Source of the DNA: Solirubrobacterales bacterium
GTDB taxonomy: Bacteria > Actinomycetota > Thermoleophilia > Solirubrobacterales > 70-9
Length of the DNA: 64,000 bases
Assembly (NCBI GenBank): GCA_035573435.1
Contig: DATMZR010000012.1
Coordinates: 124,001-188,000 of the forward strand
Reading direction: 5' to 3'
Part shown: one piece after another, positions 40,146 to 45,287 of the stretch
Numbering within the stretch: position 1 is the first letter of the stretch
How the letters are laid out: every line of letters begins with the position of its first letter
Notes under the pieces: generated by a model
What the model was told of the DNA's origin: nothing
Seen by the model: the letters and a program-made list of their open reading frames with translations, nothing else
Databases searched by the model: none
Translations under genes and position numbers: made by a program

Positions 40146-41894
40146 TCAGGTGGGGACCTGCTCGCCGAACATCTCAGGCAGGCGTCCGGCCAGGGCGAAA
40201 TCGCCCTCGAGCTCCAGGGCGCCCTCCAGCAGGAGCTTCGGCGCAAACGCCTCGCGGGCAGCCAGCCGGACGAAGTCGGGAACGCTGGTTCGCAGGGTGA
40301 GGGCGGGCTCGGCCGCCGCGCCGCGCCGCACCGCCGCCCGGCCGTCGCCGATCCGGAGCGTCCAGCTCTGCGGCCCGTCGCGACCGTTCAGCTCGTAGGC
40401 GATCTCGCCCTCGAATCCACGCGTCGCCTCGGGAACGAAGGAGCGCTCCATCCCCTTGAAGATGATCGCCAGCCCGGGCCCACGATCGAAGAGCCGGTGG
40501 AGCTGCTCGTCGCTGCGACCGCGAACCAGGCCTGCGAAGGCCGTTTCCGTGACCCGGGCTGCCAACTCGCGCGCCGACAGGAATCGCCCGGGGCCGCCGT
40601 CTTGCGCCGCCCCCACCCGAGCCGCGGTCTCCGCATGCGCGGGCGCGGGCTCACGATCGGGCTTGACGACGTAGTCCGGATCCGACACGCGCGCGGGGGC
40701 CCGCCGGGCCATCGCAAGCTCCAGCGCCTCCTCCAGCCGCTCGCCCTTGGCGCGCTCGCGCTCAGAGGCGCGCTCCATGAATCGCGGCAGGACATCGGCC
40801 GCGATCAGCTCGATGCTCTCGCAGATGTGCTCGTGACGGTTGGCGCCGGCCTGCAACACGAAGATCACCTGGTCCACGCCGGCGGTCTCGTAGCGCTGGA
40901 TCAGGTCGGCCACCTGGTCAGGGGTCCCGATTGCCCCGCGGAGGCTGCCCAGCCCCTCCTGGAGGAGCCGGACGCCCAGCGGCGCGTCGTCGGGGGTGAC
41001 GATCTCCCGGGCGAAGCCGACTTCGGTGCGCCGCTCCTGGAACTCCTGCCACACGTTCGAGCGGCCGGGGCGGTGCTCGCCGAAGGCGTAGTAGTAGGCA
41101 AGCGAGAAGCCGAAGAAATGGGCGCCGTCGATGCCGCGTTCGATCGCCGTCGCCTCGTCACGGTGGCACATCATCGGCAGCACCACGGCGACGTTGGGGT
41201 TGACCGCGAATCCCCCCGGCACGCAGCGATCCGAGGCAATCAGCTCGTAGTAGGAGTCGACCCACTCCTTCGCGGCCTCGGGCTCGACGAAGGAGAAGGA
41301 CAGGGCTCCCAGCCCCCGTTCCGCCGCCGTCAGGATCGTGTCGCGGCGGCTACACGCCACCCAGAGCGGCGGGTGGGGGCGCTGCTTCGGCTTTGGAACC
41401 ACGTTTCGGGGCGGCATCGACACCCAGCGCCCGTCGTAGCCGGCAAACGGCTCCTCCACAAACATGCGGGTGATCGCGTCCAGGGACTCCTCCCACTGGG
41501 CTCGCTTGTGCTCCCGGTCCACTCCGAAGCCGCCGAGCTCAATCTGCGAGCTTCCTTCGCCGGTGCCGAACTCGACCCGCCCGCCGGAGAGCAGGTCCAG
41601 CGTCGCCACCCGCTCGGCCACGCGCGCCGGGTGGTTGACGGCCGGCGGGATCTGCACGATCCCGTGGCCGAGGCGGATCCGGCTCGTCCGCTGGCTGGCG
41701 GCGGCGAGGAAGACCTCGGGAGCGCTGGAGTGCGAGTACTCCTCCAGGAAGTGGTGCTCGACCTCCCAGACGTAGTCGAACCCGACCCTGTCGGCCAGTT
41801 CCACCTGCTCGAGGGCGTTGGTCAGCAGCGTGGCCTCATCCGGCTGCCCAGGGGCGTGGGGCAGCTGGTGCTCATAGAAGAGGCCAAACCTCAC
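40146..41894 (-). CDS. LLM-class flavin monooxygenase fused to an SCP2-like sterol-carrier domain
   Basis: Protein of 582 residues. The N-terminal about 390 residues are a bacterial-luciferase-like TIM barrel (FGLFYEHQLPHAPG, LGHGIVQIPPAVNHPARVAERVATLDLLSGGRVEFGTG, KQRPHPPLWVACSRRDT). After a charged linker, the C-terminal about 140 residues resemble an SCP2 lipid-binding domain (FKGMERSFVPEATRGFEGEIAYEL, WTLRIGDGRAAVRRG, LTLRTSVPDFVRLA, ELEGDFALAGRLPEMFG). F420 or FMN cofactor and substrate cannot be decided. I chose the GTG at 41894, typical for LLM proteins; an ATG at 41939 would extend it across the start of the divergent transporter gene. Confidence 0.85.
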   Translation of the reverse strand: MRFGLFYEHQLPHAPGQPDEATLLTNALEQVELADRVGFDYVWEVEHHFLEEYSHSSAPEVFLAAASQRTSRIRLGHGIVQIPPAVNHPARVAERVATLDLLSGGRVEFGTGEGSSQIELGGFGVDREHKRAQWEESLDAITRMFVEEPFAGYDGRWVSMPPRNVVPKPKQRPHPPLWVACSRRDTILTAAERGLGALSFSFVEPEAAKEWVDSYYELIASDRCVPGGFAVNPNVAVVLPMMCHRDEATAIERGIDGAHFFGFSLAYYYAFGEHRPGRSNVWQEFQERRTEVGFAREIVTPDDAPLGVRLLQEGLGSLRGAIGTPDQVADLIQRYETAGVDQVIFVLQAGANRHEHICESIELIAADVLPRFMERASERERAKGERLEEALELAMARRAPARVSDPDYVVKPDREPAPAHAETAARVGAAQDGGPGRFLSARELAARVTETAFAGLVRGRSDEQLHRLFDRGPGLAIIFKGMERSFVPEATRGFEGEIAYELNGRDGPQSWTLRIGDGRAAVRRGAAAEPALTLRTSVPDFVRLAAREAFAPKLLLEGALELEGDFALAGRLPEMFGEQVPT

Positions 41895-41913
41895 GCGGGG
41901 CGAGGATAGTCCG

Positions 41914-42837
41914 ATGGCGGCAATCGTGTCGGCGATCATCCTGGCGACGGCCGGGGGAGCCTGGGCGGAGCATCGCTACGGCGGGCGCGCCGGGGTCGCT
42001 GCGCGCCGGGCACTGCTCTTCGTGCTCTACGTGGTGCTGCCGCCGATCACCTTCTTCAATCTCACCCGGGTCGAGTTCGACGCCGACGTCGGGCTGGGGA
42101 TCGGGCTCGCGTACCTGGCGCTGGCGCTCGCGGCGTTGATTGCCTGGTTCGTGGCCTCGCGGCCGCTGGGCCTGCCACGCCCCGCCGTCGGCTCCGTGAT
42201 CTGCTGCACACTGGTGGCGAATACCGGCTATCTCGGCTATCCGCTGGTCGCCGCTCTGCTCGGCTTCGACGAGCTGTCCGAGGCGGTGGTCTACGACGTG
42301 CTGGTCTCCGCACCGGCCCTGCTCGTCGGCGCGTTCTCGGTTGGCGCCGCGTTCGGCGAGCGCGCGGGCGAGACCCCGAGGCAGCGAGTGGCCGCGTTCT
42401 TTCTCCGCAACCCGGCGCTCTACGCGGCCGCGCTGGCGCTGGTCGCCCCGGACTCGCTGGCGCCGGACGTCCTCGTGGACGCCTCGCGGATCGCGATCGT
42501 GGCCGTGCTTCCGCTCGGATTCTTCGCCGTCGGCGCAGCGCTCGCCGAGCAGGCCGACGAGGGCGCGATTCCGGTACCGCCGCCGCTCGACGCCGCCGTC
42601 GCGACGACTGTGGCGCTGCGCTTGGCGGTTGCGCCCGGGCTGCTCGCCCTGCTCGCCCTGCCGCTGATCGACCTACCGGGACCCTACCTGCTGCTCGCCG
42701 CCATGCCCTGCGGCATCAACTCGATGATCGTCACCCACGCCTACGGCCTGGACCTGCGGATCTCCGCCGCCGCGGTGGCCTGGTCGACGGCGGTCGTGGT
42801 GGCGGCGGCCGTCGGCTCGGTGACCATTTTTGGCTAG
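41914..42837 (+). CDS. AEC-family (auxin efflux carrier-type) transporter
   Basis: Membrane transporter of 307 residues with ten hydrophobic helices in two five-helix repeats. Family cues: LLFVLYVVLPPITFFNLTRVEF in the second helix, CTLVANTGYLGYPLVAALLGFD with the unwound crossover region, and AMPCGINSMIVTHAYGLD near the end. Such carriers export organic acids or amino-acid derivatives; the substrate is unknown. Starts only 19 bases from the LLM start on the other strand, so the two share a very compact divergent promoter region. ThyX-like gene follows 46 bases later. Confidence 0.82.
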   Translation: MAAIVSAIILATAGGAWAEHRYGGRAGVAARRALLFVLYVVLPPITFFNLTRVEFDADVGLGIGLAYLALALAALIAWFVASRPLGLPRPAVGSVICCTLVANTGYLGYPLVAALLGFDELSEAVVYDVLVSAPALLVGAFSVGAAFGERAGETPRQRVAAFFLRNPALYAAALALVAPDSLAPDVLVDASRIAIVAVLPLGFFAVGAALAEQADEGAIPVPPPLDAAVATTVALRLAVAPGLLALLALPLIDLPGPYLLLAAMPCGINSMIVTHAYGLDLRISAAAVAWSTAVVVAAAVGSVTIFG

Positions 42838-42883: not shown

Positions 42884-44473
42884 ATGCGCTACCCGGTCGA
42901 GTCGTTCACCGCGGATGAGGAGGCGCTCCTGCGTCGCCACTTCACCAATCTCGACCGCCCGGTCTTCTGCCTGGTCAACCTGCCCGAGACGGTGAAGGGC
43001 GCGATGTTCGCGCGCTACTCGCGCTACGCGGGCTCGGTGCGAAGGCTGTTCCTGGACGAGTTCGCAGGCGACTTGCCCGAGGGCTCTCGGCCCTTCGACG
43101 GCGTCGAGGGCGAGCGCGCCGCGCAGCTGTATGAGCGGGTCTTCATCGGCTACGGCGACGACTCGATCGGCCAGGTGGGAGGCGCGCATCTGGCCTGCGA
43201 GTGGGTCTCGAACATCCTCACCAAGGTCCTCCAGCGCGGCCGGCTTGCCGCCTACCTGGAGCAGTCAACGCGCTACATCCCCTACGACCAGCCGATGGAG
43301 GAGGGCGGCGGCTATCGCTACTACCGCGACGAGCGGCTGGGCGAGCCCTACCGGGCCGCGATGGACGAGCTGTTCCGCGTCTACTCCCGCAGCCTGGAGT
43401 CGGTTCAGTCGTGGGCTGCCGAACGATGGCCGCGGGCCCAGGAGCCCGAGGACGCTTGGCGCCGCTCGATCCGCGCCAAGTCGCTCGACCTGCTGCGGGG
43501 TGTGCTGCCTGCGTCGACGCTCAGCCACGTCGGCATCTTCGCGTCCGGCCAGGCCTACGAACAGCTCCTGCTCCGTCTGATGGCTTCCCCGCTGCCGGAG
43601 GCGCGCGAGTACGGCGACATGATCCTCACCGAGCTCGCCAAGGTGATCCCGAGCTTCGTCGGGCGGATCGAGCGGCCCGATCGCGGCGGCGAATGGATCG
43701 ACTACCTGCGCGAACGCCGGCGGGCCACCGAGCGCGCGGTGGCGCGGATGGGACTGGACCATCCGACCCAAGGCGATGCGCCCTCGGTCGAGCTGGTCCG
43801 TGTCGAGGGCAATGAGCAGGATCTCCTGGCCGCCTCGTTGTTCGAGTCGGCGAGCGCGTCCGAAGCCGAGATCCGCGACAGGATCGACGTCCTGGACCCG
43901 CTGGAGCGCGCCGAGCTGATCGCCGAGCTGGCAGGTGAGCGGCGAAACCGTCGCCACCGCCCTGGCCGCGGCTGGGAGGCGGTGCGCTACCGGTTCGAGA
44001 TCGTCTCCGACTACGGTGGCTTTCGCGATCTGCAGCGCCATCGGATGCTGACCTGCCAGTGGCAACGCCTGGGGCCGCATCTGGGCGCGGCGATCCCGGA
44101 GGAGGTGCGCGATGCGGGCGCCGGGCCGGAATACGAGCGGGCCCTGGAGATCTCGCGGGGGGAGTTCGAGCGGCTCGAGGCGGAGGGGCTTGCCGAGGCG
44201 GCGCCCTACGCTCTCTGCCTCGGCTACCGGATCCGCTATGTCCTCGATCTCAACGCGCGGGAGGCCATGCACGTGATCGAGCTTCGCTCGGGCCGCGAGG
44301 GACACCCGACCTACCGCGCTGTCGCCCAGGCCATGCACGAGCGCATCGCGGCTGTCCACCCCGCGATCGCCGGGGCGATGGTTCACGTGGATTCCTCTCG
44401 CGAGCCGCGCCTGGAGCGCATCCTGGGCGAGATCCGCACCCACCGAAAGCGCCTGGCCGCGGCTCGCGGCTGA
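42884..44473 (+). CDS. two-domain ThyX-like flavin-dependent thymidylate synthase protein
   Basis: Protein of 529 residues, about twice ThyX length, with two ThyX-like halves. Canonical ThyX has RHRxxSxNExSxRY. In the first half residues 118-131 read RGRLAAYLEQSTRY, keeping E, S and RY but with Gly for His. In the second half residues 384-395 read QRHRMLTCQWQR, keeping RHR but losing the N-E-S part. Each half also has a helical segment with conserved aromatic residues. Active sites of ThyX form between subunits, so the halves might complement each other, or the protein may no longer make dTMP. The ATG at 42884 was chosen; the open frame extends a few codons further. No thyA or ordinary thyX is in the window. 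Confidence 0.82.
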   Translation: MRYPVESFTADEEALLRRHFTNLDRPVFCLVNLPETVKGAMFARYSRYAGSVRRLFLDEFAGDLPEGSRPFDGVEGERAAQLYERVFIGYGDDSIGQVGGAHLACEWVSNILTKVLQRGRLAAYLEQSTRYIPYDQPMEEGGGYRYYRDERLGEPYRAAMDELFRVYSRSLESVQSWAAERWPRAQEPEDAWRRSIRAKSLDLLRGVLPASTLSHVGIFASGQAYEQLLLRLMASPLPEAREYGDMILTELAKVIPSFVGRIERPDRGGEWIDYLRERRRATERAVARMGLDHPTQGDAPSVELVRVEGNEQDLLAASLFESASASEAEIRDRIDVLDPLERAELIAELAGERRNRRHRPGRGWEAVRYRFEIVSDYGGFRDLQRHRMLTCQWQRLGPHLGAAIPEEVRDAGAGPEYERALEISRGEFERLEAEGLAEAAPYALCLGYRIRYVLDLNAREAMHVIELRSGREGHPTYRAVAQAMHERIAAVHPAIAGAMVHVDSSREPRLERILGEIRTHRKRLAAARG

Positions 44474-44507: not shown

Positions 44508-45287
44508 GTGGTTCCGCACCGGCAGAGGGGGAGCACGCTGCTGATCGCCGTTGGCCTCTTGATGGTCTGCCTGGCGATCCCTGCAACGCTTGTCGGTGCC
44601 CAGGCTCCCGCTCCGGCTCCCCCCGCCGACGTCGCCACGACGCCTCAGGATCCGGCCGAGGCCCCAGCGCCACAGCCACAGCCGTCGGAGGTCCCCCCGC
44701 CGGACACGCAGGAGACGCCGGACCCGACCACGACACCGCCTGCCCCCACGGAGCCGGACGAGACGACGACGCCGGCGCCCGCACCTGCCGCCCAGGTCAG
44801 GGCCGCAAGCTCGGCATCCGTGGCGATCCTCGATGGCAACTCGCAGAGCGCCTTTCGCTTCTCGCCGAATTCCCTCACCGTCAACACCGGCGACACCGTC
44901 ACCTGGACCAACAACGGTGCCGAGCCGCACGACGTCACGGGGGATGGCCTGGCATCGGGGACGCTGGACTCGGGCCAGGGCTACTCGCACACCTTCGCGA
45001 CCGCCGGCACCTACAGCTACATCTGCTCGATCCATCCGTTCATGAAGGGATCCGTGACGGTGCAGGGCGCGAGCTCGGGAGGCGGCGGAGGGTCGACCGA
45101 CTCCACCCAGGATCCGTCCGCGTCCACCGGGACCGGTTCGGAGTCCAGCGCGGTCACCTCACCGGATGCGGCCGGGAGCTCGACACAGCTCCCCTCGACC
45201 GGCATGCCGGTGCTGCCCCTGCTGGCCGTCGGCGTGGGGCTCCTGGTCGCGGGGGCGCTGTTGCGCCGCCGCGCCCTCCTCAGCTAG
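44508..45287 (+). CDS. secreted cupredoxin with LPXTG-like cell-wall anchor
   Basis: Exported protein of 259 residues, GTG start. Signal peptide (LLIAVGLLMVCLAIPATLVGAQA), an approximately 80-residue proline/threonine-rich stalk, a plastocyanin/pseudoazurin-like domain (about 100-185) with copper ligands His in AEPHDVTG and Cys-His-Met in YICSIHPFMKG, a Gly/Ser/Thr-rich linker, then LPSTG 32 residues from the end, a hydrophobic helix and RRR. This is the order of a sortase substrate. An electron-carrier role at the cell surface is inferred from the copper site. Its last 8 bases overlap the convergent DJ-1 gene. Confidence 0.85.
   Translation: MVPHRQRGSTLLIAVGLLMVCLAIPATLVGAQAPAPAPPADVATTPQDPAEAPAPQPQPSEVPPPDTQETPDPTTTPPAPTEPDETTTPAPAPAAQVRAASSASVAILDGNSQSAFRFSPNSLTVNTGDTVTWTNNGAEPHDVTGDGLASGTLDSGQGYSHTFATAGTYSYICSIHPFMKGSVTVQGASSGGGGGSTDSTQDPSASTGTGSESSAVTSPDAAGSSTQLPSTGMPVLPLLAVGVGLLVAGALLRRRALLS

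What the first reader, a model, noticed from the sequence alone, without database searches (positions are those of the whole stretch)
42884..44473. Two-domain ThyX-like protein with complementary, partly degenerate ThyX motifs
The 529-residue protein has two ThyX-like halves. The first half keeps the ExSxRY end of the RHRxxSxNExSxRY motif (residues 118-131) and the second keeps RHR (385-387), each lacking what the other has. ThyX active sites form between subunits, so this may be an internal duplication that split the active site across the fusion, or a neofunctionalised flavoprotein. Which of these holds is not decidable by eye.
Basis: partly seen in the sequence, partly recalled or inferred. 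Interest (0 to 1): 0.62.

Follow-up and report, generated by a model that had tools for sequence, protein, structure and literature searches.

The report
Fused double ThyX with split active site
This bacterium probably makes the DNA building block thymidylate with two ThyX enzymes fused into one chain, each half keeping only the part of the active site that the other has lost; hundreds of related bacteria, and some plasmids and phages, carry the same arrangement, but I found no published description of it.

Summary
Window 42884-44473 (+) encodes a 529-aa protein made of two ThyX domains. Both match Pfam Thy1, and both AlphaFold2 halves match solved ThyX chains (C-half Z 17, N-half Z 12.6). The complementary loss is conserved: in 126 of 126 relatives the N-half keeps ExSxRY and the C-half keeps RHR plus the Arg that contacts dUMP; the reverse occurs in none. 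In MtbThyX those two sets come from different subunits (A and C) of one active site. The likely enzyme is a dimer mimicking the ThyX tetramer, with two live composite sites instead of four. It is probably the genome's thymidylate synthase: no ThyA, other ThyX, DHFR or thymidine kinase was found, while dcd and dut are present. In 296 Actinomycetota genomes, 88 carry this form and 120 ordinary ThyX, with no overlap. DHFR is present in 31 of 31 strong-ThyA genomes but 2 of 88 with this form. Relatives occur on Bacillota plasmids and in phages, one beside a dCMP deaminase gene. RefSeq calls plasmid-borne members 'FAD-dependent thymidylate synthase'; I found no paper describing the split. Not shown: activity, the dimer, or that the motifs meet in space.

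The parts
42884..44473 (+). Double-ThyX gene, 529 aa
   Evidence: AF2 model pLDDT 89.6, pTM 0.88
42884..43753 (+). N-terminal ThyX-fold half (residues 1-290)
   Evidence: Own AF2 model, pLDDT 86.3; Z 12.6, rmsd 3.8 over 194 residues to MtbThyX 3gwc; best unrelated chain Z 4.4
43775..44404 (+). C-terminal ThyX-fold half (residues 298-507)
   Evidence: Z 17.2, rmsd 2.4 over 192 residues to T. maritima ThyX 5ior
43010..43024 (+). N-half ARYSR (residues 43-47): my assignment to the folate loop, Ser46 at the place of T. maritima Ser30
   Evidence: SR conserved in all phyla sampled; T. maritima alignment from own knowledge; Ser30 role from PMC11940539
43154..43165 (+). N-half GDDS (residues 91-94): Ser94 = MtbThyX Ser71; Asp92 at the place of T. 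maritima His53
   Evidence: Ser94 126/126; position 92 Asp in 122 and His in 4 of 126; mapping
43235..43276 (+). N-half degenerate ThyX motif RGRLAAYLEQSTRY (residues 118-131): Glu126, Ser128, Arg130, Tyr131 kept; His of RHR lost
   Evidence: 126/126 for all four; mapping to MtbThyX 95-108 by hhalign
43961..43978 (+). C-half PGRGWE (residues 360-365): Arg362 at the place of MtbThyX Ser71 (FAD phosphate), Glu365 at Glu74
   Evidence: Arg362 123/126, Glu365 122/126; mapping
44036..44044 (+). C-half RHR (residues 385-387), FAD/dUMP contact = MtbThyX 95-97
   Evidence: 126/126
44252..44287 (+). C-half NAREAMHVIELR (residues 457-468): Arg459 = MtbThyX Arg190 (FAD), Arg468 = Arg199 (dUMP; T. maritima Arg174)
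   Evidence: Arg459 122/126, Arg468 126/126

Best explanation
This is the cell's flavin-dependent thymidylate synthase, built as a fused, asymmetric ThyX. Two chains (four ThyX domains) take the place of the ordinary ThyX homotetramer. The C-half acts as the flavin-holding subunit, with RHR and the Arg that contacts dUMP. The N-half supplies the dUMP loop ExSxRY and the folate-side residues. Each working site joins a C-half to one or two N-halves, so there are two live sites per dimer and the two reciprocal sites are dead. Chemistry is inferred to be that of ThyX: dUMP + CH2-THF + NAD(P)H to dTMP + THF. Shown: two ThyX folds (as predicted models), the partition of residues, its conservation, and phyletic replacement. 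Inferred: dimer geometry, number of live sites, activity.
For: Motif partition 126/126 against 0/126. In MtbThyX one site takes R95/H96/R97 and R199 from subunit A, S71/R190 from B and the 103-108 loop plus R87 from C (PMC6514825): the A set is in the C-half, the C-role loop in the N-half. Both halves fold as ThyX. Own genome: no thyA, no other thyX, no DHFR, no thymidine kinase, but dcd and dut. In 296 genomes: 88 double, 120 ordinary ThyX, overlap 0; ordinary ThyX or strong ThyA in 1 of 88. DHFR in 31/31 strong-thyA genomes, 2/114 ordinary-ThyX genomes without strong thyA, 2/88 double. Neighbours: dCMP deaminase in phage Tunturi_5, dCTP deaminase on a Euzebya plasmid.
Against: Score is below the NCBIfam thyX cut-off. 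His53 (folate/flavin contact) is Asp in 122/126, and Arg87 of the dUMP site is Asn in 116/126. The role-B residues do not fall in one half: Ser71 is kept in the N-half, Arg190 in the C-half of most members, so which half plays B is unresolved. Phyletic counts are not corrected for shared ancestry.
Confidence: 0.78

Rival explanations
1. It is a flavin-dependent nucleotide methylase of another kind (a UMP or modified-pyrimidine methylase like PolB), and dTMP comes from elsewhere.
For: PolB (4p5b) has the ThyX fold and also matches; the sequence lies below the thyX equivalog cut-off; two active-site positions differ from the canonical ones.
Against: No ThyA, other ThyX or thymidine kinase in a 97% complete genome; mutually exclusive with ordinary ThyX in 88 against 120 genomes; DHFR profile like that of ThyX users; neighbours that make dUMP or its precursor in two mobile elements.
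Confidence: 0.1
2. Only one half is catalytic (the C-half, the better match to ThyX); the N-half is a degenerate scaffold or regulator.
For: The C-half matches solved ThyX better (Z 17 against 12.6) and keeps RHR, Arg190 and Arg199 equivalents.
Against: The C-half lacks the whole dUMP loop in 126/126, and exactly that loop is invariant in the N-half; a scaffold would not need Ser128/Arg130/Tyr131 invariant across phyla.
Confidence: 0.06
3. The partition is real but all four sites remain partly active, or the chain works as a monomer with one site in cis.
For: R120 of the N-half is kept in 122/126 and an Arg aligns with Arg199 in 99/126.
Against: The His of RHR is absent from every N-half and the dUMP loop absent from every C-half; ordinary ThyX sites need three chains.
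Confidence: 0.06

Closest known systems
ThyX / flavin-dependent thymidylate synthase (M. tuberculosis 3gwc, T. maritima 1o26, H. pylori 3n3y)
   Same: Fold of both halves, RHR and ExSxRY motifs, genomes without folA
   Different: One 529-aa chain instead of single-domain chains of about 220-250 aa; each motif in only one half; His53 to Asp in most members; expected two sites instead of four
T. thermophilus Thy1 with an extra C-terminal domain (6j61)
   Same: An enlarged ThyX that matches both halves
   Different: 270-aa construct with a single ThyX domain
PolB, UMP/dUMP methylase (4p5b)
   Same: ThyX fold
   Different: Single domain; works in polyoxin biosynthesis
PHROG phrog_36506 (phage 'thymidylate synthase', 491 positions)
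   Same: Similar length; matches P0001, Tunturi_5 and the B. licheniformis member
   Different: A family name only; I found no account of a split active site

Membership tests
ThyX / Thy1 superfamily (PF02511) | Match to the Thy1 profile above the gathering score | tested here: met
   110.2 bits against 24.8, two stretches; each half over the cut-off on its own
ThyX / Thy1 superfamily (PF02511) | ThyX fold | tested here: met
   C-half Z 17, N-half Z 12.6 on confident predicted models
Canonical ThyX (TIGR02170 equivalog) | Score over the curated cut-off | tested here: not met
   50.7 against 87.9 bits
Canonical ThyX (TIGR02170 equivalog) | Complete RHRxxSxNExSxRY-type motif within one domain | tested here: not met
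   Split between halves in 126/126; canonical proteins from the phylum carry both parts in one domain
Canonical ThyX (TIGR02170 equivalog) | Homotetramer with sites shared by three chains | not testable with these tools
   Single-chain models only
Flavin-dependent thymidylate synthase (function) | FAD-dependent dTMP formation from dUMP | not testable with these tools
   Indirect only: sole synthase candidate, phyletic replacement
ThyA (PF00303) | ThyA profile match | tested here: not met
   No ThyA in the genome; protein matches only Thy1

The most novel reading that the evidence does not exclude
The two sites that lost catalysis have been kept as binding sites with a new use, for example to sense dUMP, dTMP or a folate and regulate the two live sites. 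That would make this an asymmetric, allosteric thymidylate synthase, with C-half Arg362/Arg459 and N-half Asp92-Asp93/Arg120 conserved for that purpose.
Probability: 0.12. Interest if true: 0.78.

Novelty: new variant of a known kind. Interest (0 to 1): 0.6.

Why it matters
An essential enzyme appears to have moved from four identical sites to a fused, asymmetric form in which each half does only part of the job, and this form has replaced ordinary ThyX and ThyA in about 30% of the sampled Actinomycetota. It offers a natural test of which ThyX subunit contributes which step, because flavin-side and dUMP-side residues sit in separate halves of one gene and can be mutated independently. It also means that the thyX equivalog model can miss a common thymidylate synthase.

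Tried and rejected
phmmer of the single protein against PDB sequences found nothing; a family profile found ThyX chains only weakly (E 0.014, C-half). Direct N-half against C-half profile comparison gave no significant match, so a recent internal duplication is rejected. I checked the weak single-domain thyX hits in G009, G039, G051, G075 and G162 as possible split halves: they are a different ThyX. Literature searches for two-domain, tandem or fused ThyX found nothing in the open-access library; key papers such as Leduc 2004 are not held, so absence of a description is not proven. The tree joins long branches and was used only for the monophyly of each half. A scan of the phylum leaves 64 genomes with none of the three synthase classes at strong score, so 'no synthase found' is not proof of absence.

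Full report
What is there. Window 42884-44473 on the + strand is an open reading frame of 529 codons. Both halves match Pfam Thy1 (as separate genome hits 59.6 and 49.3 bits). The whole protein scores below NCBI's thyX cut-off. The neighbours (Mem_trans-type transporter, luciferase/SCP2 protein, plastocyanin-like protein) say nothing about function.

Who has it. Relatives occur in 88 of 296 sampled Actinomycetota genomes, most full length at about 530 aa and 41-80% identity (a few hits are fragments). A named scan found at least 572 relatives; the best 80 are nearly all named as Solirubrobacterales, Acidimicrobiia or other Actinomycetota. The tools gave the window no name; its closest named relatives are Solirubrobacterales. 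Outside the phylum: plasmids of Paenibacillus and B. licheniformis (528 and 565 aa), a plasmid assigned to Parabacteroides distasonis (539 aa, 42% identity), phage Tunturi_5 (518 aa, beside a dCMP deaminase), Vibrio phage XC31 (461 aa) and one viral contig. RefSeq names the plasmid-borne ones 'FAD-dependent thymidylate synthase'.

Structure. AlphaFold2 with 68 sequences in the alignment gives pLDDT 89.6 and pTM 0.88. Residues 298-507 match T. maritima ThyX at Z 17.2, 2.4 A over 192 residues. The N-half, modelled alone (pLDDT 86.3), matches MtbThyX at Z 12.6, 3.8 A over 194 residues, while unrelated chains reach only 4.4.

Which half keeps what. Profile alignment to canonical ThyX fixes the residue mapping (R362, E365, R459 and R468 of the C-half correspond to Mtb S71, E74, R190 and R199). 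Counts over 126 relatives: N-half E126, S128, R130, Y131 all 126/126, RHR 0/126; C-half R385, H386, R387, R468 all 126/126, ExSxRY 0/126. In MtbThyX one active site is made of R95-H96-R97 and R199 from subunit A, S71 and R190 from B, and R87, Q103 (backbone), S105, R107, Y108 from C (PMC6514825 section 3.1). So the A set survives in the C-half and most of the C set in the N-half: the two partial motifs are those that meet in one ThyX site. R87 itself is Asn in most N-halves. The B set is divided: Ser94 (S71) in every N-half, Arg459 (R190) in most C-halves, with Gln223 in most N-halves but Arg in the two Bacillota members and Tunturi_5. Which half plays B is therefore open.

Function from genome context. 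The own genome (97.4% complete) has no ThyA, no other ThyX, no DHFR and no thymidine kinase that the searches could find, but has dCTP deaminase and dUTPase. Across 296 genomes the double form and ordinary ThyX never co-occur (88, 120, overlap 0). Only G199 also has a strong ThyA, and it lies on a contig with an intron endonuclease and a DHFR gene, as if foreign. Absence of DHFR fits enzymes that leave THF rather than DHF (established knowledge): DHFR is found in 31 of 31 strong-ThyA genomes, 2 of 114 ordinary-ThyX genomes without strong ThyA, and 2 of 88 double genomes. These counts are not independent of phylogeny, but the form is swapped within families: f3 and f45 each hold double genomes plus an ordinary-ThyX genome (G143, G172).

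Evolution. In a tree of 42 rows each half forms one clade (100/99 and 99/93), with the Bacillota members as one pair within each half. This fits one old fusion before the spread among phyla and phages. Long branches and midpoint rooting leave open whether the halves arose from one duplication or from two different ThyX genes; they do not match each other directly.

Conclusion. Best reading: a fused, asymmetric thymidylate synthase whose dimer copies the ThyX tetramer and has two composite live sites (0.78). Superfamily membership, predicted fold, residue partition and phyletic replacement are shown. Geometry, stoichiometry and activity are inferred and need the experiments listed. It is not a canonical ThyX (cut-off and single-domain motif tested, not met), but it probably works like one.

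Noticed in passing
L061, L062, L063, L064, L065 (genomes G009, G039, G162, G051, G075): A single-domain ThyX of about 300 aa whose motif order looks circularly permuted: LNTHRAFSRNSASSRAIP comes first, CARVSYLTHDG and HWSPLEHVATP come last. It is the only synthase candidate found in the three genomes of genus g30, whose family otherwise uses the double ThyX.
   Followed up: partly
L161 (G199:C39) 466-2390: A ThyA gene interrupted by about 1 kb holding a GIY-YIG group I intron endonuclease ORF (TIGR01453), with a DHFR gene downstream, resembling the T4 td arrangement; probably a phage or foreign contig. No Rfam intron match.
   Followed up: partly
L162 (G015:C2) 703-1365 and similar hits in about 46 Actinomycetota genomes: A 220-aa methanogen-type ThyA (TIGR03283, 87 bits against a cut-off of 174.55). 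Similar weak ThyA hits are the only synthase signal in about 40 sampled genomes, none of which showed DHFR.
   Followed up: partly
window 40146-41939 (-): A 597-aa fusion of a luciferase-like monooxygenase with a C-terminal SCP2 sterol-carrier domain.
   Followed up: no
window 44508-45287 (+): A plastocyanin-like protein with a Pro-rich stalk and a C-terminal LPSTG plus membrane segment, like a sortase signal.
   Followed up: no
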